From positions 1 to 64,000 of the IMG/VR virus record IMGVR_UViG_3300025634_000002: DNA of 64,000 nucleotides; one strand, written 5' to 3'. The notes beneath the pieces were generated by a model. It made no database searches, was not told the origin of the DNA, and saw nothing but the letters and a program-made list of their open reading frames with translations. Each line of letters opens with the position of its first letter. Positions within the stretch are counted from its first letter, which is position 1. The translations under genes were made by a program, and so were the position numbers. The DNA comes from a virus. Shown one piece after another: positions 10,359 to 23,369 of this stretch.

Positions 10359-12398
10359 TTAGAGCGTCTTGACCTGGTGATCCTTGGCTTCGGGGAAGCG
10401 GCTGAAGAAGCCGCTGGCCGCCGCAGCGTCAGTGGCGATCGTCACCTGCCGAGCGCCAGAGCCGGGGAGCGGCTGCGCCTTGAGGATGGCGCGGTAGGTG
10501 CCAGCCTCGTGCGGAACGTCGACGAGGTCGACATGCATGGCCACCAGAGCGGTCTTATAGACCTCGGCGGCACTATCCATCGCGACGGCGATCTTGCCGA
10601 TGTAGGGGCGAACCTCTTCCTCGGCCTTGCGGATATCGCGCTCGACCTGACGGGCTTCGGCGACGGCCTTGGTGACGGCGGCGTCCATGGCCTTGCGGTC
10701 CTTGGCGGACTTGTCCTTCGCCTCGTCCTTGTCGGCCTCTTCTTTGGCCTTCTTCTTTTTCTTTTCTTCCTCGTCGTCGTCTTCGTCCATGGCTTCCTGG
10801 TCGTCCTTGTCCCAAAGGGCGTCGCAGGCCTTCATGTCGTCGGCGCTGAGTTTGTCCTTGAGGAATTCGTTGACGCGCTTGCGCGGGTCCATCTCCTCGT
10901 CTTTGGCCCTCTTGCCCATCGGCACGCCGGCATTCGGATCGAGGTCTTCGCCGAGCTCGGTCGATTCGAGCGCGTCGAGCAGTTCGATCATGTCCTCGAG
11001 GTCGGCATCCTTGGCCAGCTTGCCCTTGGTGAGCTTGGTCACGCCATCGGCGATGCCGGCACGGCTATCGGCGTAGTTCTTGCCGGTCACCTTGGCCAAC
11101 AGCGGCGTGAGGTCGATCTTGGTGTCCGCGGCCAACTTGGGCTTGAGGAACACAGTGAGCGCACCCTGCACGAGGGCCGCTTTGCGGGTCAGAAGAGGCT
11201 TTGCGGCCATCTCAGGGTTCTCCTTGATTGCTGAATCGCCGACAACGACATCGGGCCCGGCGCGGCCTTGAGTTACGAGGGCGACGTGATTGCCGACAAT
11301 GTCGCGCATCACGCCGTCATAGGGTTCGCCCTCATAGCTGCCGGGCGTCATATCGGCCCGGTAGCGATAGGCGGACGAAAGTTCTTTCTGCTTACCGGAC
11401 TCGATAAGCTCGATCGCCTCGCCGTCCCAGATGGAAAGCGGGGCCATCAGGTAAGGTGCTTCGAAAACCACGTCGTCGCCGATGGCGCCGATCGTGATCT
11501 CCCGATGCGAGTCCTCGGCGCTGACCGGAATGTGCTCCATCAGCAATTGCTTGCCGGCGAAGGTCGGCGCGGCCTTGGCGAGCTCCACCGGGTCGCGGAG
11601 GAGCATGTAAACCTTTTGCGGATCGAGCCCCATGGACTCGGCGTCCGCGATCTCGTGGCCCCAGTAGGGGCAAATGTTCGCCTTGCTGATCGGGGTCATC
11701 TCGACGAAGAGGTGGCCATCCTGATCGATGCGGCGAACGCTGTCCCGATCGAAGGCAATCGCCCGCGGCCGATCGGCCGAGGCGCGATCGAACGCCATGG
11801 CAGCGTCCTGTGCCGGCATGGCTTCGACTTTGGCTCGCACCCAGCCGGCGAAGTTCTGCTTGAGCTCGTCCCAATCCGCCGGGAACATCGCGCCCGCCAG
11901 ATCGAGACTGAGACGGCGCTCGAGCGTCTGCTTCACTCCGGGATGGAGCGGTGCCGGCAACTGATCGAGCGGCACCCAGGCAAATCCCGAATGCTCGTCG
12001 CTCAGCGTCGGCGCGAATTTAGTGTCACTGGGCTGCGCGAAGGTATGGAACGCCATGCCCTTAGGTGTCACGGCGCTATCGAGCAGCTTACGCGGCGTCA
12101 GCGGGATCGAACCCACCTCCTCGCCAGCTTCGCGGGCCGCAATAGCCTCAGGGGCTTCCCCGGGCTCGCCCTTGCCACCCGGCAGATCCCAATGGCCTGC
12201 CCAGTTCTCATCGCCTGAGCGGCGACGGAGAAGCAGGATGTCACCGTCGGGCGCCACGAACATGATGCCGGACGCGAGACCGTTCACGGCATCCTTCGCG
12301 ACGAATTCTTCCCCGACGGCTTTGGGGATTCCGAGCGTCGAGTGACCACTGGCCGCTGCGAACATCGCTTTGCGTTGAGCTTCCGAGACGGCTGGCAT
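10359..12398 (-). CDS. NUDIX - DUF2213 prohead protease - scaffold fusion
   Basis: 679 residues. Residues 1-36 (VSEAQRKAMFAAASG) match a short phage motif; residues about 43-165 are a NUDIX hydrolase domain with the box G-x5-E-x7-RE-x-x-EE-x-G at 75-97; residues about 215-385 are DUF2213, a prohead-protease-like domain with candidate catalytic His289 (LLMEHIPV) and Ser341/342 (ELSSAYRY); residues 545-600 are a Lys/Asp/Glu-rich helical scaffold. The protease/scaffold matures the head; the NUDIX part would hydrolyse a nucleoside-diphosphate derivative, substrate unknown. The fusion is continuous with no internal stop. Confidence 0.85.
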   Translation of the reverse strand: MPAVSEAQRKAMFAAASGHSTLGIPKAVGEEFVAKDAVNGLASGIMFVAPDGDILLLRRRSGDENWAGHWDLPGGKGEPGEAPEAIAAREAGEEVGSIPLTPRKLLDSAVTPKGMAFHTFAQPSDTKFAPTLSDEHSGFAWVPLDQLPAPLHPGVKQTLERRLSLDLAGAMFPADWDELKQNFAGWVRAKVEAMPAQDAAMAFDRASADRPRAIAFDRDSVRRIDQDGHLFVEMTPISKANICPYWGHEIADAESMGLDPQKVYMLLRDPVELAKAAPTFAGKQLLMEHIPVSAEDSHREITIGAIGDDVVFEAPYLMAPLSIWDGEAIELIESGKQKELSSAYRYRADMTPGSYEGEPYDGVMRDIVGNHVALVTQGRAGPDVVVGDSAIKENPEMAAKPLLTRKAALVQGALTVFLKPKLAADTKIDLTPLLAKVTGKNYADSRAGIADGVTKLTKGKLAKDADLEDMIELLDALESTELGEDLDPNAGVPMGKRAKDEEMDPRKRVNEFLKDKLSADDMKACDALWDKDDQEAMDEDDDEEEKKKKKAKEEADKDEAKDKSAKDRKAMDAAVTKAVAEARQVERDIRKAEEEVRPYIGKIAVAMDSAAEVYKTALVAMHVDLVDVPHEAGTYRAILKAQPLPGSGARQVTIATDAAAASGFFSRFPEAKDHQVKTL

Positions 12399-12598: not shown

Positions 12599-12819
12599 CA
12601 GATTGCCCTATCCGTCATGACGCCTTGCGGATTTGCCGGAGTGGTCACCAGAAACCTCGTTTTATCCGAGTAATCCTTGTCTACTTCCATCGGAACGGCT
12701 GCCGTTTGCATGACCCCTAGTTTAGGAGTGCATGCCGCCAGCGCCTTGTCCTGAGACGAGTAGATGCCGTCGATCTCTAAGCCATCCGAACCGATCCGCA
12801 CGACGACCCAGACCTGCAT
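12598..12819 (-). CDS. Small hypothetical, head-gene linked
   Basis: 73 residues. The start MQVWVVVRIGSDGLEIDGIYSSQDKA is beta-like and resembles short phage proteins that compare or label gene products, but no function can be given. One-base overlaps on both sides tie it to MuF and the protease gene. Confidence 0.6.
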   Translation of the reverse strand: MQVWVVVRIGSDGLEIDGIYSSQDKALAACTPKLGVMQTAAVPMEVDKDYSDKTRFLVTTPANPQGVMTDRAI

Positions 12820-13634
12820 CAGCTAAACCCTTTGATCACCGGCCGTCCCACGCACCGGCAGTTGATCAGCTGCCCGGGGAGTATGTGCTCGCCAACATCT
12901 GGATCGAACCAGCCCTCGGCGATCTTGTAGCGCGTCTTTTCGCGGCCTGCCTTCAAGTGCGTCGGCCGCGGCTCATGGCCACCGCCAGAATGCGTCCAGA
13001 TGGCTTCCTCGAACCCGACTTCAATCTGCCGAGCCCGGACCATGCTCGAGGTCGCGAGGTTGTTCTGTGTGCGCGCGATCAGCGCCGCGCGCCGGTAGGT
13101 GACGCCGTAGCGATCCTGCAGTTCTTTGGTCAGCATGCCGAGGTCGCGCCCGGTCTGCACGGACCGCATGACCATCCCCTCGATCTCTACGAAATACTGA
13201 GCGGGGATCGACTTTATTAGAGCGACATTCTGATTGAGCGTCGCATTGAACACGTCACGCATTGCCGGCGTCATCTTGAAGGCGACCGTGAGGCCGGCAT
13301 CCTTCAGGATTTTGCGCAGCGCGTCGGCGGACCGTTTGTCGCTGGCCTTGGCGAACCAGGCGGCGAGCTTCGGACCCGCCTCGTCGAACTTCTTCTGCCA
13401 GCGCTTGGAGAGTTGCCGGATCGAGCGCTTCAGCGCGTCGGCCGGGGTTTCGTCAAGCGCGATCGGCTGGTTTGCCCGGTAGGACGCCCGTAGCCAATAG
13501 ACCGTGCTTTCGGACATCTCCTTGATCAGGCTCGAGAGCCTGCGCTGGTACTCAATCTGAATCCCAAGATTCGGGTGAATAGGACGAAGCAGTCGCTCTT
13601 TCTTCAAACGAGCAACCCTTGGCGCCGCGCCCAT
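12819..13634 (-). CDS. MuF-like minor head protein
   Basis: 271 residues. The C-terminal third has ARTQNNLATSSMVRARQI, then RPTHLKAGR, GWFDPDVGEHILPGQ and INCRC, the hallmark of the Mu gpF / SPP1 gp7 domain. This minor head protein joins the portal ring before DNA packaging. Normally it follows the portal directly; here an HNH gene and a 3.5-kb opposite-strand island separate them. Its ATG lies 31 bases inside the HNH gene. Confidence 0.9.
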   Translation of the reverse strand: MGAAPRVARLKKERLLRPIHPNLGIQIEYQRRLSSLIKEMSESTVYWLRASYRANQPIALDETPADALKRSIRQLSKRWQKKFDEAGPKLAAWFAKASDKRSADALRKILKDAGLTVAFKMTPAMRDVFNATLNQNVALIKSIPAQYFVEIEGMVMRSVQTGRDLGMLTKELQDRYGVTYRRAALIARTQNNLATSSMVRARQIEVGFEEAIWTHSGGGHEPRPTHLKAGREKTRYKIAEGWFDPDVGEHILPGQLINCRCVGRPVIKGFS

Positions 13635-16240: not shown

Positions 16241-17038
16241 ATGCCCAGGATGGACTACGATGCACGGCAGGCCGCTCGGCAGGAGCGGCTTGAGGCTAGG
16301 GCCGACAAGTTGACCAAGGCCAGCGCCGCCGCCTTCAAGAAGGGCGACGACATGTTTTCGATCATCCCGTTCGGCCAGCCTATTCTGGTCGGACACTACA
16401 GCGAGGGCCGGGACCGGCGCTATCGGGCGCGGGCCGCAGGCCAATTGGACAAGGGCGTGATGCTCGCCAAGGAGGCAGGCAACGCAGCAGCAGCCGCGGC
16501 GTCGATCGGCACCGGCGGCGTGAGCTCGGACGATCCGAACGGGATCGAGAAACTGACCGAGAAGCTTGCCGGGCTCGAGGCCAAGCAGGCGAAGATGCAG
16601 GACGCCAACAAGGCAGTCCGTAAGGGCGACCGGGCCGCCCTGATCGCGCTCGGCTTCACCGCAGCCAACGCCGAGCAGGTCTGCACGGTGCCGGTATGGG
16701 GCACAAAGCTTTGCGCCTTCGAGCCCTACCAGTTGCAGAACAACGGCGCCACGATCCGGGCGACCAAGGCGCGGATCGAGCAGTTGAAGGCCGCGGCCAC
16801 GGTCGAGACCAAGACGATCGAGACGAACCTCGGATTCGAGGTCATCGAGAACGCCGAGGCAAACCGGGTGCAGATCATCTTCCCGGGCAAGCCCGACGAG
16901 GCCACCCGGACGATCCTCAAGGGCGCCGGCTTCCGCTGGTCGCCGAGCGAGGGCGCCTGGCAGCGGTTGCTGAACAACGGAGCTCGGTGGGCAGCGCAGC
17001 GGGTTATCGCCGAACTGACACCGAAAGAAGCCGTCTAG
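16241..17038 (+). CDS. DUF3560 family protein
   Basis: 265 residues. The N-terminal half with KADKLTKAS-like helix, IPFGQPILVGHYSEGRDR and R-x-RARAAGQLDKG matches DUF3560, a plasmid- and phage-borne family. The C-terminal 60 residues (LKGAGFRWSPSEGAWQR) match a short domain often fused to it. Biochemical role unknown. Followed by promoter C. Confidence 0.8.
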   Translation: MPRMDYDARQAARQERLEARADKLTKASAAAFKKGDDMFSIIPFGQPILVGHYSEGRDRRYRARAAGQLDKGVMLAKEAGNAAAAAASIGTGGVSSDDPNGIEKLTEKLAGLEAKQAKMQDANKAVRKGDRAALIALGFTAANAEQVCTVPVWGTKLCAFEPYQLQNNGATIRATKARIEQLKAAATVETKTIETNLGFEVIENAEANRVQIIFPGKPDEATRTILKGAGFRWSPSEGAWQRLLNNGARWAAQRVIAELTPKEAV

Positions 17039-17055
17039 CTCACTTTATTTCATCG

Positions 17056-17090
17056 GACATATTGTCAATACCGGCAATATGTCCTACATC
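17056..17090 (+). promoter_or_regulatory. Promoter C of the plus island with paired dyads
   Basis: TTGTCA (17062-17067), 17-base spacer, TACATC (17085-17090). GACATATTGTC (17056-17066) covers the -35 box. The second site GGCAATATGTCC (17073-17084) is, with one change, the reverse complement of the first. Confidence 0.75.
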
Positions 17091-17115
17091 TGGATAGTCA
17101 GAACGGAGGACTCAG

Positions 17116-17370
17116 ATGGGCAAGGAATACGTCATCAAGAAGCTGGTCGCGGGCACGAAGCTCCCGACCTTTCAGACCCTCGGCACGGTTAAGGGACCGT
17201 TCCAGTTCCCGCGCTCGAGCGCTGCGCTGGCGTTCCTGATCGATCAGGTCAACGCCCGCAAGGCCATCGGTATCTATCCGATGCCCGACGAGGACAACCC
17301 CGGCTGTATCGATGTCATGGTCGACTTCGGCGGACCGGTCGAGCAATACGCAATCGAAGGGAGGACGTGA
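17116..17370 (+). CDS. Small hypothetical of the plus island
   Basis: 84 residues, MGKEYVIKKLVAGTKLPTF onward, ending YAIEGRT. Ribosome site GGAGGA. First gene after promoter C and overlapping the next gene by 4 bases. No family recognised. Confidence 0.6.
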   Translation: MGKEYVIKKLVAGTKLPTFQTLGTVKGPFQFPRSSAALAFLIDQVNARKAIGIYPMPDEDNPGCIDVMVDFGGPVEQYAIEGRT

Positions 17371-17597
17371 TGCAGATTTACGTGATCCAGAGCGGCACGA
17401 TCGGCGATCCAACGAGCCCGATCCCGGCATGGTGGACCGGCAGCGGATGGTCGGCGGAGCGGCCCAACGCGATGGAGTTTCCGTCCTACATGTCGGCTGA
17501 CGTGCAGTTGAAGATGCTGTTTCGGTCGCCGACCAGCAACAAGAATTTCGTCCATATGGCCGAGATCATCGAGGAAGAGAAGGAGACCATAGCTTGA
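17367..17597 (+). CDS. Small hypothetical of the plus island
   Basis: 76 residues, with WWTGSGWSAERPNAMEF and a C-terminal Glu-rich helix. ATGA-type overlaps join it to both neighbours. Function unknown. Confidence 0.6.
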   Translation: MMQIYVIQSGTIGDPTSPIPAWWTGSGWSAERPNAMEFPSYMSADVQLKMLFRSPTSNKNFVHMAEIIEEEKETIA

Positions 17598-17833
17598 AGA
17601 TCGAACCGCTCAGCCAGATCACCGTGACCGCCGATATTTCGCGGCCTGTGCTCCACATGACGTGGGCCGATTTCGGCTTCACGATCGGCGCCAAGGACCC
17701 CGTGCTCGCCGAAATCAAGGCCGCGCTCGAGAAGGGCGACACCTACACCATGCCCATCCAAACGACGTCCGTCTTGATCGCCGCGAACGGCAAGGTCTCA
17801 AAATATCACGGCGATTGGAGCAAGTCGAAATGA
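17594..17833 (+). CDS. Small hypothetical of the plus island
   Basis: 79 residues from a TTG start overlapping the upstream stop (TTGA). The body (VTADISRPVLHMTWADFGF) is beta-like. Coupled by a 4-base overlap to the HTH gene downstream. Confidence 0.55.
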   Translation: MKIEPLSQITVTADISRPVLHMTWADFGFTIGAKDPVLAEIKAALEKGDTYTMPIQTTSVLIAANGKVSKYHGDWSKSK

Positions 17834-18066
17834 CCAAACCAAAACCGATGTCAGCGGCAGAATTCGCCAAGTCGCTGGCGACCCTAGAACTCACCCAGCG
17901 AGCAGCAGGGCCGCTCCTAGGGGTCGACGAGCGCACCATCGCCCGATGGTTCCACGGTCACATCCAGGTCCCGCTCAGCGTGACCTACCTGCTCCGCGTG
18001 ATCATCAGTTCCGGCACGACGTTCGAGGCCGTCACGAAGATTCCTTCGTATCCGCCTCGGGCTTGA
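17830..18066 (+). CDS. Small helix-turn-helix protein, candidate repressor of the island
   Basis: 78 residues. FAKSLATLELTQRAAGPLLGVDERTIARWFHG is a Cro/CI-type helix-turn-helix. Being last in the island that holds three dyad-bearing promoters, it is the obvious candidate to bind them, but this is inference. Its 3' end overlaps the convergent minus gene by 35 bases. Confidence 0.7.
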   Translation: MTKPKPMSAAEFAKSLATLELTQRAAGPLLGVDERTIARWFHGHIQVPLSVTYLLRVIISSGTTFEAVTKIPSYPPRA

Positions 18067-18229
18067 TCTTGCCGGCTTCAGCTTTGGTCCGGGCAACGAA
18101 TTCCGCCCGGGCCTTTTTTGCGTCTGGCGACGTCATGGCGTCGAACTTGTCAGGGTCCGGCGCTCCAGTGTCGTTCTCGAAGGCGTCGTCAGGGATCGGA
18201 CTACCGTCCTTGAATTTATACCCGTTCAT
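18032..18229 (-). CDS. Small charged protein after the portal gene
   Basis: 65 residues (MNGYKFKDGSPIPDDAF), Lys/Glu/Asp-rich. The ATG at 18229 has GGTGAG upstream and overlaps the portal 3' end by 14 bases; a GTG three codons earlier is possible. The plus-island terminator is embedded in it. Function unknown. Confidence 0.6.
   Translation of the reverse strand: MNGYKFKDGSPIPDDAFENDTGAPDPDKFDAMTSPDAKKARAEFVARTKAEAGKIKPEADTKESS
18086..18119 (+). terminator. Strong terminator of the plus island
   Basis: GGTCCGGGC and GCCCGGGCC form a 9-bp stem (one G-U) with a 10-base loop followed by six T. It lies 20 bases after the HTH gene stop and, unusually, within the coding region of the convergent minus gene 18032-18229. 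Confidence 0.85.
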
Positions 18230-20786
18230 CGTTCTCACCGGCCACGCGGCGTGGCTTGTCGCCGGAGTTGTTATCGTAGACCGCCCATCGTTTGCAAATG
18301 GGAATGATCGCGTCGAAGTTCTTTTCGTTGTCGACGTTGCCCATGATCACCTCAGGCGGAACGAACCGACCCTTTTCGCCGCCGCGGACAAACCTGCCCA
18401 TGGCGCGCTCGGTGGCCGTCTCCGGAGAGGCGTACATGTAGAAGGCGTGGATGTCGTGACCAGCCGTCTCGAACTGAGCAATTCTGCCGGCGGCGCTCTT
18501 AGAGCTCTTCAGCGTCGCGTCGAACACCACGTGGATGCCGAACGCGATCGCCATCTGAGCGGCTTGCTGGACGAGGTAGTCGGACTCCTCATGCAGCTGG
18601 GCCGCGTTCCAGCCCTCATACTCGGGCAGTTGCGACTTGAAGTAGTCCGCGTCGATAACCAGCGTCTTGCTGGCGTCGATCGGGCCATCCTTGCCGGTCA
18701 GCCAACTCTTTCCCGAACCACCGCGGCCTCCGAGGATCGTCATCGAAGGCTTCTCACCGGGCGCCGGTGTTGCTCGAGCGACGGACTCCGCCGTGAACAG
18801 GCCGGCAAGCACTCGATCGTGGATCTTGGCCCGCTCTGGCGACCAGGCGCCGTCTTCCTGCATGTGGCCGCCTTCGCTTACCGAAGCATCGGTCGGAACG
18901 ACCTTGTCCAAGCGTGCTCGAGCAGCTGCGATCTTTTCGGTTGCGCCGGCCTTGGCGGCGATCTGGGCCGCCTTGGTGTCCCGTTCCGCGGTCGTCATCG
19001 GCTTGGGCTGATGCGTCTCGTAGAGGCTCGAGGCTGGCCGCTGAGCAGCGACTGCCGCAGCCGCCTTGGCTGCCGAAGCTTGGCGCTCCGACTTTCCCGA
19101 TTTCTCGGTCTCAGCTTTCTCCTTGCCGGCGCCTTCGGACTTGGCCGGGTTGCCGGCACCCTCACCAAACTTCCCGTCATCGCGACGCGGATGCTTGCTT
19201 TCGGTCCAGTCTGCGTCTTGGGCTTTGCCGCCGCTGACCTCGGTCGCAACTACTTCTGGTTTGCCGCCCGATGGCTCCAAGCCGCCCTCGGTTTCTTCCT
19301 CGAGGAGGTCCGGCAGGTCGTCGACGTCAAGCCCTGCATACGGCGTGTCGGGATCACCAGCAACGCGCTTGCGGATTTCCTCAGGCGCCAGCACGCCGGT
19401 GTCGACGTGGATCTGATCGGTCTCGGCGTCGGTCTTCCTGACCTCGGCCGCGTCCTTTTCGCTCAGGGCCCACAGCGGCTCGAACTTGAAGCCGATCTGG
19501 TCGTCGGTCTCGCCCCACAGCGAATACATGACGTAGCCGAGCAGCCGGTGGATTTTGTCCCGGTACTGATGCTCCTGGCACGACGCGATGTAGTCGTAGA
19601 ACGACCGCATCACGCCTTCGGAATCGGCGTTCAAACCGGCCGGCTGAATCCCGAGCAGTTTCACCGTCGGGATATGGCTGACCGAGGCCATGTGCTCTTG
19701 CGACTGCGCGACGAGTTCGGCAACGCCAGCGATCGGCGCCGAGACGTTCTCGAATTCCTCGGAATTCTTGTCGACGATCATCAGGCCCGAATTTGCACGG
19801 GTCAGGTTGAACAGTTCGGCGCGCTTGAACAGCTGCTGGCCGTCGCCCTGGATCGAGGTGGCGAGGTTGGACTTCAATACCCAGGTCGTGAACGCATTGA
19901 GCAGGTCGCTCGCGCTCTGCCGATTCCGCAGCCAGTTGTCGACGTAGGGCTTCGCCATCTGCGACAGCGAGAGGCCGCCGAACGAATAGGTCGGCTTCAG
20001 AAGGTCCGGAACTTCCCGGGCAATGAAGGTGATCAGCCGCGAGGCGTGGACGATATTTTGCTGCGCATACCACTGTTGTGGATTGTACCAGTCGTCCTTC
20101 AGTGGATTGTTCGAATTGTAGCTGGTCGGGTAGCACCAGACCGCTTCAACCGTCTTCAGCGACACGATCGGCTTTTTCGAGAACTTGGCCTTGCTGAGAT
20201 CGTCCCAGCCGCCACCGATCGGCTTGTCGAGCTCCTTCGGGTCGTCGGTGTCGCCGGTGTCGATGTAGATGTGACCGCGGCCGAAAAACCCGTCCTGCTG
20301 GGTGGCACGAGCAAACATGTTGCGGACGTGCAGGCGCTCGAATTCGGCTTCGAGTTCCTTGATCCGGTCGGTCTTGTCGTCCTCGGTGTCCTTGGACGTG
20401 AAGCTGATCCACTTCCGGGTCATCTCCGTCGCAATCGTTTCGGAGATGATGCGGTATTCTGGACGCTGGGCGAGTTCCGACAGATAGGCGTAGCCGAGGA
20501 AGGTGACCCCCTCGGTAAAGAACGAGCCGATGATCGCCTGCGAGGCCCAGGACTGCGCCTGGATGATCCCGTCATCCATCGCCATGCCGGACTTGCCGGA
20601 GGCGGTCTTAGCCGGCCCTACGCCCGGCGGATGGGTCGGCAGGGTGAAGACCTGCGTCTTTTCCTGCTGGCGGCGCATCGTCGAGATGGCGACGTCACCG
20701 ACGACCATGCCGTGATCGGTCTGCTTGAGCGTGAGCTCTTTAACCGGCGCAGGCTGGCGAGCCCAGAGCCTGCGGAACCAGTTCAT
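18216..20786 (-). CDS. Portal protein (DUF1073 type) fused to a zeta-like P-loop kinase domain
   Basis: 856 residues; portals of this family are usually about 450-550. Residues 1-480 carry the DUF1073 portal (SFFTEGVTFLGYAYLSELAQRPEY split by helices, GRGHIYIDTG, PAGLNADSEGVMRSFYDYI). Residues 480-680 are an Ala/Lys/Glu linker with HPRRDDGKFGEG, a motif seen where phage head proteins carry extra domains. Residues 682-840 are a zeta-toxin-like kinase: Walker A GGRGGSGKS (686-694), DADYF (about 711), VVFDATL, and a C-terminal ERAMGRFVRGG arginine segment. The portal is the DNA channel. The kinase could act on a nucleotide-sugar or other small molecule; unknown. Confidence 0.85.
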   Translation of the reverse strand: MNWFRRLWARQPAPVKELTLKQTDHGMVVGDVAISTMRRQQEKTQVFTLPTHPPGVGPAKTASGKSGMAMDDGIIQAQSWASQAIIGSFFTEGVTFLGYAYLSELAQRPEYRIISETIATEMTRKWISFTSKDTEDDKTDRIKELEAEFERLHVRNMFARATQQDGFFGRGHIYIDTGDTDDPKELDKPIGGGWDDLSKAKFSKKPIVSLKTVEAVWCYPTSYNSNNPLKDDWYNPQQWYAQQNIVHASRLITFIAREVPDLLKPTYSFGGLSLSQMAKPYVDNWLRNRQSASDLLNAFTTWVLKSNLATSIQGDGQQLFKRAELFNLTRANSGLMIVDKNSEEFENVSAPIAGVAELVAQSQEHMASVSHIPTVKLLGIQPAGLNADSEGVMRSFYDYIASCQEHQYRDKIHRLLGYVMYSLWGETDDQIGFKFEPLWALSEKDAAEVRKTDAETDQIHVDTGVLAPEEIRKRVAGDPDTPYAGLDVDDLPDLLEEETEGGLEPSGGKPEVVATEVSGGKAQDADWTESKHPRRDDGKFGEGAGNPAKSEGAGKEKAETEKSGKSERQASAAKAAAAVAAQRPASSLYETHQPKPMTTAERDTKAAQIAAKAGATEKIAAARARLDKVVPTDASVSEGGHMQEDGAWSPERAKIHDRVLAGLFTAESVARATPAPGEKPSMTILGGRGGSGKSWLTGKDGPIDASKTLVIDADYFKSQLPEYEGWNAAQLHEESDYLVQQAAQMAIAFGIHVVFDATLKSSKSAAGRIAQFETAGHDIHAFYMYASPETATERAMGRFVRGGEKGRFVPPEVIMGNVDNEKNFDAIIPICKRWAVYDNNSGDKPRRVAGENDERV

Positions 20787-22445
20787 CTAGTGCCTTCTCC
20801 CAGCGCCAGCGCGCAGGCTGCGCAGCAACTCGTCGGAAATCTCCATCGGCGGGTTCACCGCCTCATATTCGGTCAACACCAGCGCGTCGGCATAATCCGG
20901 ACTCTGGATGCCGCGGGCGGCCAGTGCGGCCTTTTTCTCGATCACGATCTTGCCGCGCTCGTCCTTGCCCCACTTGACCAGAGAGAGCTGCAGGCAAAGC
21001 GTGTCGCTTTCCGGATCACCGCTGGGCAGTGCCAGGAGGTCCGTCAGGTCGGCGCTATGATCTTGGCCGCCCTTCCTCTGCTCGAGGAACAGGACATGCT
21101 CATGCGAACGCTGTGCTGCGGTGCGCACCATCCACCAAAGCTCGGCCTTCAGATTGCCGAACATCTCTTCCGAGGTTCGACCGTCTGGCCAGATGTTCTG
21201 CGTCGGCGGCAGGCCGGTGTTGACTGCCAACACCAGCAATCCCTTGGTCGGATTGTGCATCAGGGTCGACGACACACCGAAGCCAACACCAGGCGCATCG
21301 AAGTTCAGTTGGCTCGCGCCGTTTTTCTTGGCGACCTCGATGCCCCAGTGGGCAGTTTCGGTCGTATCCGGATCGGTTCGCGACTCCGGCGGCTTGACCA
21401 CCGGACCCTTGCGAGGCACCGCGACGGACTTCGCCTTACCCGCTCCGACGTCCAGCCCGATAACCGCGGAGTTGGATGCCTTGAGCCTCGGTTCCAGCGC
21501 CAGAAGTCGTTTGCAGCTTTCGACCCAAAGGGCCGGAACGCAGATCCCGGTGACACTTGCCGAGTAGTCGATGTCGTATTCGGAGGCCCAGGTCGTCGGG
21601 TCCGAAAAGCTCGCCTCTTTGGCCTTGGCCCATTCCTCGGTCTTTCGAGGATCGTCACGCCAGTGCAGGCGGAAAATCTGGTGACCCTTAAGGATCGAGT
21701 GACGCTTACGGGCAAACAGATTGCCCATGCCATTCACCGACGAGACCCAGATCACGCAGTCCGTATTGGCGGACAGCGATTTCTCGATCCGCTCGGCGTG
21801 CTCGATGTGCGCCGCTTCGTCGATGAAGATGACCGTCGATCGACCAGACCGGCCGATTTCCTCGCCGCTGTCGCCCGTAATGGACGCCCCGGAGTCGGGG
21901 TTCAGCAGCTTCATCGATCGCGAGTGACGCGAAAATTCAAATCCGGGTGGCAGCATCTCCGGAGGCAGCCGGCGCATCATGGCGCGCAGCTTCTCAAAGA
22001 GGCTGTCCATGTTGCCGACTTCATCGACATTCCGCTCGAGGTTAGACCCGAACGTCGCCTTGAAGCCTGGACTATAGCGCCACTTCCATAGCGCTACCGC
22101 AAGGCAGAGATACGAGGCGCCGACATCGCGGCTCTTCTCGATCAGGCCTTCATCGTTCCGGTCGATCTGGCCGATCAGCCATTTGACGCAGTCGACCTGC
22201 TTGGGCCACAGCTTGAAGGGTAGATACCGCGGCGACCCATCGGACGGGCGCGGATCGTAAATCCACAGATAGGTCTGAATCCAGTAGAGGCAGCCGTCAA
22301 CACCAGCCGCGCATTTTTCGTTTTCGGCTTTCCAGCTACCCTGGCTGGCCTCAATCCGTCGCTTCTGCCGTTGCGCCGCTAGTGCTTCCGACCAGCCCGA
22401 GCTTTTCGAGAATTGGAATGGCCGCGTCGAGAGCAGCGAGTTCAT
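20787..22445 (-). CDS. terL: Terminase large subunit
   Basis: 552 residues. ATPase motifs: Walker A-like EKSRDVGAS at 103-111 and Walker B VIFIDEAAH at 205-213; the C-terminal RNase-H-like nuclease starts with VIGLDVGAG (D332). It pumps DNA into the prohead through the portal and cuts the concatemer. It abuts the portal gene and overlaps the small-terminase 3' end by 95 bases; the start codon lacks a good ribosome site, so the true start may be internal to the first 20 codons. Confidence 0.92.
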   Translation of the reverse strand: MNSLLSTRPFQFSKSSGWSEALAAQRQKRRIEASQGSWKAENEKCAAGVDGCLYWIQTYLWIYDPRPSDGSPRYLPFKLWPKQVDCVKWLIGQIDRNDEGLIEKSRDVGASYLCLAVALWKWRYSPGFKATFGSNLERNVDEVGNMDSLFEKLRAMMRRLPPEMLPPGFEFSRHSRSMKLLNPDSGASITGDSGEEIGRSGRSTVIFIDEAAHIEHAERIEKSLSANTDCVIWVSSVNGMGNLFARKRHSILKGHQIFRLHWRDDPRKTEEWAKAKEASFSDPTTWASEYDIDYSASVTGICVPALWVESCKRLLALEPRLKASNSAVIGLDVGAGKAKSVAVPRKGPVVKPPESRTDPDTTETAHWGIEVAKKNGASQLNFDAPGVGFGVSSTLMHNPTKGLLVLAVNTGLPPTQNIWPDGRTSEEMFGNLKAELWWMVRTAAQRSHEHVLFLEQRKGGQDHSADLTDLLALPSGDPESDTLCLQLSLVKWGKDERGKIVIEKKAALAARGIQSPDYADALVLTEYEAVNPPMEISDELLRSLRAGAGRRH

Positions 22446-22830
22446 CTTCGGTCAGTCCGTCAAAGTCGTTGCTTGTGAGTAGCACGACCTGAACGGCACC
22501 GGAATGCTTATGCTGGTCGACGATCATGCCGAGCAGCTTAGCCTTGCCCATGGTCCCCTGGATCATGGCGTTGGACTGCTTTTCGCCTTTGGCAACACCG
22601 CGGGCTTCGTCGAGCTCCGCCACCAAGCTATCGATCGTGATCTCGGCCTTCTTGGCGCTTTTGGCCTGAAGTTCGGCGATCCGATCTAGAATGCTTTGGT
22701 TTGTTTTAAGCGTCGATGCGTTGCCGCGGTTCGGCTTATAGCCGGCCGTGACATAAGCCTCGTCGGCCGTTTTACCCTTGGCGAGCTCCTGAGCGAAACG
22801 CTCATGCCTAGCGTTTGGCAGGGCTGTCAC
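22351..22830 (-). CDS. terS: Terminase small subunit
   Basis: 159 residues from a GTG start overlapping the upstream stop (GTGA). ERFAQELAKGKTADEAYVTAGY is the DNA-binding helix-turn-helix of the Terminase_2 family, followed by helical oligomerisation region IDSLVAELDEARGVA. It recognises viral DNA and recruits the large subunit. Confidence 0.88.
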   Translation of the reverse strand: MTALPNARHERFAQELAKGKTADEAYVTAGYKPNRGNASTLKTNQSILDRIAELQAKSAKKAEITIDSLVAELDEARGVAKGEKQSNAMIQGTMGKAKLLGMIVDQHKHSGAVQVVLLTSNDFDGLTEDELAALDAAIPILEKLGLVGSTSGATAEATD

Positions 22831-23369
22831 GGGACAGTCCCTTTGAGGATCGCACGAAACTGCTCGCGACCGATGTCGCAATACATCTTCTTGATGATCG
22901 CCAATATGTCGTCAGTCAGGTCGATACCGTGAAATTCAAGACCGCCATGCGACAACAGCAGGGCGATGGAGCGCCGAAGACTTGGAGCAAGCCGCTCAAC
23001 CATCTTAGTCGTCCAAGGCCGATAGACCAGTAGCCTTGTAGGCCGCAGGAATTCCTCGACCTCACGAACGGTCATGACCCCGCCGCGTTGCACATTGGTC
23101 AGGTTCTTTAACCCGATATGCTCGATCCTGCGTCGCTCAGCGTCGTACGCTGCAGCTTCGTCGGCAAATCTCTCGACGATCCGGTAGCTTACGCGAGCCC
23201 CCGCAGCGACAATGTCACGAATACGCTGACACTTCCTGCTGTAAAAGCCGCGTTCCGCCTCTCGCTCATGATCGTACATCCGTCGCCGCTGGCCTTTGCC
23301 GACGTAAAACACGTCGCCAGTGCGAGGGTCGATCAGTTCATAGACGTAGAATTTCATCCCGTCGCTCAT
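22827..23369 (-). CDS. GIY-YIG nuclease-domain protein
   Basis: 180 residues. The start FYVYELIDPRTGDVFYVGKG is the GIY-YIG core (YVYE...FYVGKG), with downstream Arg and Glu candidates (RRRMYDHEREAERG). The C-terminal half is helical. It sits between small accessory genes and the small terminase, a usual place for free-standing homing endonucleases. Confidence 0.75.
   Translation of the reverse strand: MSDGMKFYVYELIDPRTGDVFYVGKGQRRRMYDHEREAERGFYSRKCQRIRDIVAAGARVSYRIVERFADEAAAYDAERRRIEHIGLKNLTNVQRGGVMTVREVEEFLRPTRLLVYRPWTTKMVERLAPSLRRSIALLLSHGGLEFHGIDLTDDILAIIKKMYCDIGREQFRAILKGTVP

What the first reader, a model, noticed from the sequence alone, without database searches (positions are those of the whole stretch)
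18216..20786. Portal protein fused to a zeta-toxin-like kinase
The 856-residue frame holds a full DUF1073 portal, a 200-residue low-complexity linker with HPRRDDGKFGEG, and a P-loop domain with GGRGGSGKS, DADYF and VVFDATL. Twelve portal copies per virion would carry twelve kinases at the DNA entry/exit channel. MuF-type head proteins are known to carry effector domains; a portal carrying a zeta-like kinase may be an injected or prohead-acting effector, or an anti-superinfection toxin. No epsilon-like antitoxin was recognised nearby.
Basis: partly seen in the sequence, partly recalled or inferred. Interest (0 to 1): 0.8.

Follow-up and report, generated by a model that had tools for sequence, protein, structure and literature searches.

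The report
Phage portal protein carrying a kinase
A phage's DNA-entry-channel protein really does end in a toxin-type kinase held on a floppy tether; related phages carry the same kinase on several different virion proteins, often beside a tiny companion gene that may be its immunity factor, so phage particles may deliver a toxin-immunity pair.

Summary
One 856-residue minus-strand frame joins a complete Phage_portal_3 portal to a zeta/AvrRxo1-type P-loop kinase with an intact catalytic set. It is not a freak: the same kinase family sits on portals (at least three places on its tree), on MuF head proteins, on polyvalent proteins, or in the gene next to the portal. Portals of this family carry interchangeable C-terminal enzymes. 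Effector-portal fusion is already published (Iyer 2017, 2022), so this is a new variant of a known kind.

(1) The "HPRRDDGKFGEG" linker is a recurrent module-junction motif, found on 10 of 17 extended portals and 0 of 44 unextended ones. (2) The kinase has a candidate partner. A 65-residue ORF overlaps its stop codon; two families of such ORFs lie beside 51 of 98 kinase loci and nowhere else in the DNA examined. Searching 2.9 million viral contigs with the small ORFs alone fetched 13 loci, all with the kinase just upstream.

Most likely function: a virion-borne effector kinase, held inside the head, released and delivered, with a cognate immunity protein in the producing cell. Release, delivery, substrate and immunity are inferred.

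The parts
18216..20786 (-). Portal-kinase fusion gene, 856 aa
   Evidence: Open frame and coding-like codon composition; PF06381 + PF06414
19410..20486 (-). Phage_portal_3 (DUF1073) portal domain, residues 101-459
   Evidence: PF06381 E 1.9e-77; phrog_146 portal E 1.1e-103; Foldseek to E217 portal E 2.6e-17
19047..19319 (-). Disordered tether, residues about 490-580
   Evidence: AlphaFold2 block means of about 31-57 in most of this stretch
19165..19193 (-). HPR..GKFG module-junction motif (in KAQDADWTESKHPRRDDGKFGEG)
   Evidence: Only match in the window, 0 in shuffles; recurrent in phage virion proteins
18897..19034 (-). Accessory helices ahead of the kinase, residues about 585-630
   Evidence: AlphaFold2 helices with pLDDT about 73-83
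18231..18869 (-). Zeta/AvrRxo1-type P-loop kinase domain, residues about 640-852
   Evidence: PF06414; model pLDDT 91.5; fold matches; invariant residues
18032..18229 (-). Small partner ORF (65 aa from ATG at 18229; 68 aa from GTG at 18238), candidate immunity/antitoxin; overlaps the fusion gene's stop by 14 nt
   Evidence: Homologues lie next to the kinase in unrelated contigs and nowhere else in the DNA examined
20787..22445 (-). Terminase large subunit, directly upstream of the portal
   Evidence: phrog_2 E 3.8e-18
12819..13634 (-). MuF-like head morphogenesis protein
   Evidence: phrog_324 E 2.6e-76
10359..12398 (-). Head maturation protease (DUF2213) with an N-terminal Nudix domain (41-159)
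   Evidence: phrog_2229 E 8.6e-124; PF09979 E 7.6e-47, NUDIX E 1.7e-18

Best explanation
The gene makes a portal whose C-terminus, on the inside of the head, carries a small-molecule kinase on a disordered tether. Twelve copies would be built into each virion at the portal vertex. The kinase belongs to a phage-restricted branch of the zeta/AvrRxo1 kinases, used as an interchangeable virion effector module. In the producing cell the overlapping 65-residue ORF most likely binds and silences the kinase, as AvrRxo2 does for AvrRxo1. The tether, marked by the HPR..GKFG junction motif, is most likely where the module is released. The freed kinase would enter the next cell with the DNA and phosphorylate a nucleoside-diphosphate-type metabolite (NAD-like or nucleotide-sugar), to blunt nucleotide/NAD-based defence or restrain the host. 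Shown by computation: the fusion, the fold, intact catalytic residues, recurrence on several virion carriers, the motif, the linked small ORF. Known for relatives: portal C-terminus inside the head; a MuF-zeta protein in virions. Inferred: twelve copies here, release, ejection, substrate, immunity, benefit.
For: Portal and kinase in one frame. Portal homology and fold to E217/Pa193, whose barrel projects into the head and whose residues after 528 are not resolved (PMC10329688, PMC11042391); the related PB1 portal carries an InPase domain in that region. Kinase residues invariant in 42 sequences: R652, K693, D714, E734, D756, T758, R794, R798, R807, D838 (index + 629). Fold: zeta Z 18.9, PezT 18.0, AvrRxo1 17.1. 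Carriers: portals, MuF, polyvalent proteins, or the gene after a phrog_12-type portal in many loci. P-SS2 ORF030 (MuF + zeta) averages 96.5 peptides in purified virions (PMC2784084). Extensions on 61 portals: ADP-ribosyltransferase 14, zeta 7, Nudix 5. Junction motif. Partner: 51 of 98 kinase loci, 0 hits elsewhere; all loci fetched with the small ORFs alone have the kinase just upstream. AvrRxo2 lies downstream in a bicistron and inhibits AvrRxo1 (PMC5087710).
Against: No direct evidence that this portal is assembled into virions, that the kinase is freed, or that it leaves the capsid. Portals stay in the head after ejection, so delivery needs cleavage, and none has been shown. Substrate unknown. 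The two partner families are not detectably related to each other, and neither matches AvrRxo2. About half of the kinase loci have no profile-detected partner, mostly in divergent branches. The window is an uncultivated IMG/VR contig.
Confidence: 0.5

Rival explanations
1. The kinase acts in the producing cell or during head assembly and is never injected. It stays tethered to the portal and acts locally or late in infection, and the small ORF tunes it.
For: The portal is retained in the capsid after ejection (E217, PMC10329688). No cleavage site is proven. The gene lies with terminase and head genes, so it is probably expressed late.
Against: The same kinase family is also carried by MuF proteins and by separate proteins, which argues for a portable effector rather than a portal-specific role. 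Other portals carry quite different enzymes at the same place.
Confidence: 0.22
2. A genuine UNAG (UDP-GlcNAc) kinase that weakens the wall of the infected cell to ease DNA entry, as Iyer et al. 2017 proposed for zeta-MuF fusions (PMC5512222).
For: Closest structures by Z-score are the UNAG kinases zeta and PezT. T758 falls on Thr118 and K760 on Arg120 of zeta, both of which contact the UDP phosphates (PMC3062530).
Against: Positions of Glu100 (ribose) and Thr128 (uracil) are not conserved, and the family has its own invariant PEYEGWNA block. The N-terminal R652/H656 segment is shared with AvrRxo1, which does not phosphorylate UNAG (PMC5087710).
Confidence: 0.15
3. A selfish or regulatory toxin-antitoxin pair that happens to be fused to the portal (addiction or superinfection exclusion from the prophage state).
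For: A candidate partner overlaps the kinase gene and accompanies the kinase between carriers.
Against: The kinase is part of a structural gene in a head-gene cluster, not a separate operon. The family is rare in cellular genomes (23 loci in a scan of 84,980 species). Epsilon-type genes lie upstream of zeta (general knowledge), not downstream.
Confidence: 0.08
4. A recent fusion by recombination with no selected function.
For: Linker of low complexity; portal fusions are a minority of the family.
Against: Portal fusions in at least three places on the kinase tree, invariant catalytic residues over 42 sequences, conserved partner ORFs.
Confidence: 0.05

Closest known systems
Polyvalent proteins and effector-bearing portals (Iyer et al. 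2017, PMC5512222; Iyer et al. 2022, PMC9503650)
   Same: Enzymatic effectors fused to virion structural domains in phage late operons; InPase, 2H and PBECR on portals, Nudix on portal/MuF/protease, and zeta on MuF are described there
   Different: The passages searched do not name a zeta kinase on a portal, the HPR..GKFG junction motif, or a linked small partner ORF (figures and supplements were not read)
AvrRxo1-AvrRxo2 (Arc1) effector/immunity pair of Xanthomonas (PMC5087710, PMC5491322)
   Same: Kinase fold, catalytic aspartate, N-terminal PERxxxH segment, HxES-like motif; partner gene directly downstream
   Different: Delivered by type III secretion into plants; in the alignment it lacks the T-x-[KR]-[ST] phosphate motif and the PEYEGWNA block; its partner shows no detectable similarity to ours
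Zeta/PezT toxins of epsilon-zeta systems (1gvn, 2p5t)
   Same: Fold (Z 18-19), Walker A, catalytic Asp, Thr118/Arg120 equivalents
   Different: UNAG ribose/uracil contacts not conserved; no epsilon-like gene recognised; carried by virion proteins
E217/Pa193/PB1 portal (Pbunavirus)
   Same: Homologous portal; C-terminal barrel inside the head followed by an unresolved C-terminal region; the PB1 portal holds an InPase domain there
   Different: Carries InPase, not kinase; no HPR motif in the PB1 sequence
Cyanophage P-SS2 ORF030
   Same: Member of the same kinase family in a virion protein, seen by mass spectrometry (PMC2784084)
   Different: Carrier is MuF, not portal; listed as 'Major capsid protein' in the paper's table

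Membership tests
Phage_portal_3 (PF06381) portal | Full-length match to the portal model | tested here: met
   Positions 3-357 of 357, E 1.9e-77
Phage_portal_3 (PF06381) portal | Portal fold similar to solved portals | tested here: met
   Foldseek to E217 E 2.6e-17, Pa193 9.8e-16
Phage_portal_3 (PF06381) portal | Forms a dodecamer at the head vertex | not testable with these tools
   Inferred from homologues
Zeta toxin superfamily (PF06414) | Walker A Lys, catalytic Asp, conserved arginines | tested here: met
   K693, D714, R794/R798/R807 invariant in 42 sequences; alignment to zeta
Zeta toxin superfamily (PF06414) | Zeta fold | tested here: met
   1gvn Z 18.9 over 201 residues, rmsd 2.7
UNAG kinase of epsilon-zeta type | All specific UNAG contacts (Thr118, Arg120, Glu100, Thr128 of zeta; PMC3062530) | tested here: not met
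   Thr118 and Arg120 equivalents kept (T758, K760); Glu100 and Thr128 equivalents not conserved; read from sequence alignment only
UNAG kinase of epsilon-zeta type | Epsilon antitoxin gene | tested here: inconclusive
   None recognised; a small ORF of another kind lies downstream; no epsilon profile was run
AvrRxo1-type effector/immunity pair | PERxxxH N-terminal segment and catalytic Asp | tested here: met
   R652 42/42, H656 40/42, D714 42/42; alignments
AvrRxo1-type effector/immunity pair | Small partner gene directly downstream | tested here: met
   ORF 18032-18229 overlaps the stop; conserved beside relatives
AvrRxo1-type effector/immunity pair | Partner homologous to AvrRxo2 | tested here: inconclusive
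   No match in PDB profile searches at E up to 10
AvrRxo1-type effector/immunity pair | 3'-NAD kinase activity | not testable with these tools
   Needs biochemistry
Polyvalent virion effector | Virion structural domain plus unrelated enzyme in one polypeptide, in a head-gene cluster | tested here: met
   same module beside ART-PolyVal, InPase or MuF in relatives
Polyvalent virion effector | Enters the host with the DNA | not testable with these tools
   Inference; P-SS2 virion peptides support packaging only

The most novel reading that the evidence does not exclude
Tailed phages carry a virion-delivered toxin-immunity system. A kinase module is plugged into portals, MuF or other head proteins through a shared junction motif that serves as a processing site, and a dedicated immunity protein of about 45-75 residues, encoded at the module's stop codon, protects the producing cell. 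The junction motif would mark effector modules across many phages.
Probability: 0.35. Interest if true: 0.85.

Novelty: new variant of a known kind. Interest (0 to 1): 0.62.

Why it matters
It adds a kinase to the enzymes that phages hang on the portal. It gives a sequence tag (HPR..GKFG) that finds virion effector modules without knowing their enzyme. It also supplies a compact candidate immunity protein, so toxicity, neutralisation and substrate can be tested together in E. coli. If right, it explains how a phage can make a potentially toxic kinase fused to an essential structural protein, and it makes testable how virion effectors leave the portal.

Tried and rejected
UNAG kinase as a firm assignment: rejected as unproven, since only the phosphate contacts are conserved. 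A known defence-system match: PADLOC gave no hit for the fusion protein. A single common origin of both small-ORF families: hhalign probability 0.3%, so kept as two groups. AvrRxo2 homology of the small ORF: no PDB match (absence is not proof). A second recurrent tag (QRRAM..GIPKKVG) was looked for beside HPR motifs: of 19 regex matches, several of them chance, 3 are in proteins with an HPR motif; the first regex for it failed. A literature search for zeta toxin plus portal protein gave two papers, neither on such a fusion judging by titles and abstracts.

Full report
WHAT IS THERE. The window lies in an uncultivated viral contig of 70,972 bases. The frame 18216..20786 on the minus strand encodes 856 residues. 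It lies directly after the terminase large subunit and in the same direction as a MuF-like head protein and a head maturation protease. Pfam gives a nearly complete Phage_portal_3 portal (101-459, E 1.9e-77) and a Zeta_toxin kinase (673-818, E 1.2e-23). The AlphaFold2 model of the whole protein shows a confident portal, a disordered tether at about 490-580, a helical segment, and a confident kinase. Its portal part matches the solved portals of Pseudomonas phages E217 and Pa193 best.

WHERE THE KINASE WOULD SIT. In E217 and Pa193 the portal is resolved only to residue 528 of 765. The E217 barrel points into the head, and Pa193 residues 529-765 have no density (PMC10329688, PMC11042391). The related PB1 portal has an InPase domain at 639-757, that is, in this unresolved region. 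By homology the kinase here would hang on the inner side of the portal. That is inference, but from a close structural precedent.

THE KINASE. A model of residues 630-856 (pLDDT 91.5) matches zeta toxin (Z 18.9), PezT (18.0) and AvrRxo1 (17.1). In an alignment of 42 viral sequences the invariant residues include R652, K693 (Walker A), D714 (catalytic), E734, D756, T758, R794, R798, R807 and D838, and most of a diagnostic PEYEGWNA block (add 629 to the alignment index; one search prints residue numbers one too low). Against zeta, T758 and K760 fall on Thr118 and Arg120, which contact the UDP phosphates of UNAG, while the positions of Glu100 (ribose) and Thr128 (uracil) are not conserved (contacts from PMC3062530). 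The N-terminal PERxxxH segment and an HxES motif are shared with AvrRxo1, a 3'-NAD kinase that does not act on UNAG (PMC5087710). The substrate is therefore probably a nucleoside-diphosphate-type small molecule, identity open.

NOT A ONE-OFF. Searching viral contigs with the kinase domain gave 66 loci. It is fused to Phage_portal_3 portals (L002, L003, L043, L049; later L243), to MuF (L032, L047), and to polyvalent proteins with ADP-ribosyltransferase, InPase or 2H domains. In 29 further loci it lies downstream of an unrelated portal family, mostly as the next gene (some contigs are near duplicates). On a tree of the kinase domain the portal fusions fall in at least three places (some nodes weakly supported). 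In cyanophage P-SS2 a MuF-zeta protein of 1500 residues averages 96.5 peptides in purified virions (PMC2784084, ORF030). A scan of one genome for each of 84,980 bacterial and archaeal species found only 23 loci, so it looks like a phage family.

THE PORTAL AS A PLUG BOARD. Of 61 complete portals fetched with the portal domain alone, 17 have a C-terminal extension of 120 residues or more. Pfam on 61 extensions (this set plus those from the other searches, so not an unbiased tally) finds ADP-ribosyltransferase on 14, zeta on 7, Nudix on 5, histidine phosphatase on 3, and topoisomerase IB, Acb1, InPase and PBECR on one or two each. The cultured Pseudomonas phage Orisa03 has portal + junction motif + ADP-ribosyltransferase. 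Such fusions are in the literature in general form (PMC5512222, PMC9503650).

THE JUNCTION MOTIF. The E three residues before HPR (69 of 74) and the following glycines (52-61 of 74) were not part of the pattern and are conserved. The motif is on 10 of 17 extended and 0 of 44 unextended portals (Fisher p 2e-7). It recurs in single proteins with a median spacing of about 285 residues, about one domain. Over all ORFs held it matches 249 times against 5 in shuffled sequences; that set is enriched by the scan, so the ratio shows non-randomness, not frequency. Here it lies in the disordered tether. Processing site, packaging tag or recombination joint are all possible; I favour processing, without proof. 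The passages of Iyer 2017 that I searched do not mention it.

THE SMALL PARTNER. Directly after the kinase lies a 65-residue ORF (ATG at 18229, overlapping the fusion's stop by 14 nt) with GxPIPxDxFEN. Homologues with the same core lie beside the kinase in L005/L006, L007, L047, L070/L086/L268 and, on the opposite strand, L053. A second family (RPDLYDxYD..PDYIQKLIAER) follows many other members, usually with overlapping start and stop. With profiles of both, 51 of 98 kinase loci score (48 on the same strand, 3 convergent; duplicates counted) and there is no hit anywhere else, including 204 loci without the kinase. The profiles were built from adjacent ORFs, so the 51 is partly by construction; the absence elsewhere is not. 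As an independent test I searched 2.9 million viral contigs with the small ORFs only: 13 newly fetched loci, all with the kinase domain ending within about 100 nt upstream, one (L312) on a contig not found before. The partner type largely follows the kinase branch rather than the carrier (L047 is an exception). The two families are not detectably related. AvrRxo1 has the same arrangement: its inhibitor AvrRxo2 is downstream in a bicistron (PMC5087710). I take the ORF as a candidate immunity protein; a packaging chaperone is the main alternative.

HOW IT MOST LIKELY WORKS. Portal and kinase are made as one chain; the small protein keeps the kinase quiet; twelve portal chains carry twelve kinases into the head; the module is released at the tether and leaves with the DNA; in the next cell, without partner, it phosphorylates its metabolite. 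The first step is shown by sequence, the third rests on homologues, the rest is inference. The Nudix domain on this phage's protease fits a theme of nucleotide- or NAD-acting virion enzymes but is not evidence of a joint pathway.

VERDICT. New variant of a known kind, with two testable additions (junction motif, linked small ORF).

Noticed in passing
window 10359-12398 (-): Head maturation protease carries an N-terminal QRKAMFAAASGHSTLGIPKAVGEEF tag followed by a Nudix domain; the tag recurs in proteins of related phages.
   Followed up: partly
L243:3863-9592: Portal of over 1910 residues with four HPR-type junction motifs and a divergent zeta domain between two of them.
   Followed up: partly
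L091:964-5016: 1351-residue protein with up to six junction motifs 152-266 residues apart and weak ParB, GNAT and kinase-like matches.
   Followed up: partly
L194:4798-9297 (P-SS2 ORF030): Called 'Major capsid protein' in the proteome paper and 'minor head protein' in GenBank, but it is a MuF + zeta kinase protein.
   Followed up: yes
window 16241-17833 (+): A block of plus-strand ORFs with coding-like composition lies inside the minus-strand head-gene region, between the portal and MuF genes.
   Followed up: no
window 22827-23369 (-): GIY-YIG (LEM-3-like) nuclease upstream of the terminase gene.
   Followed up: no
portal extensions in alignment A4: Single portal extensions carry an Acb1 (anti-CBASS) domain, a Hint domain, and a zincin-like metallopeptidase.
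   Followed up: no
L023, L049, L053: The small partner ORF is convergent with the kinase gene rather than downstream on the same strand, yet still adjacent.
   Followed up: partly
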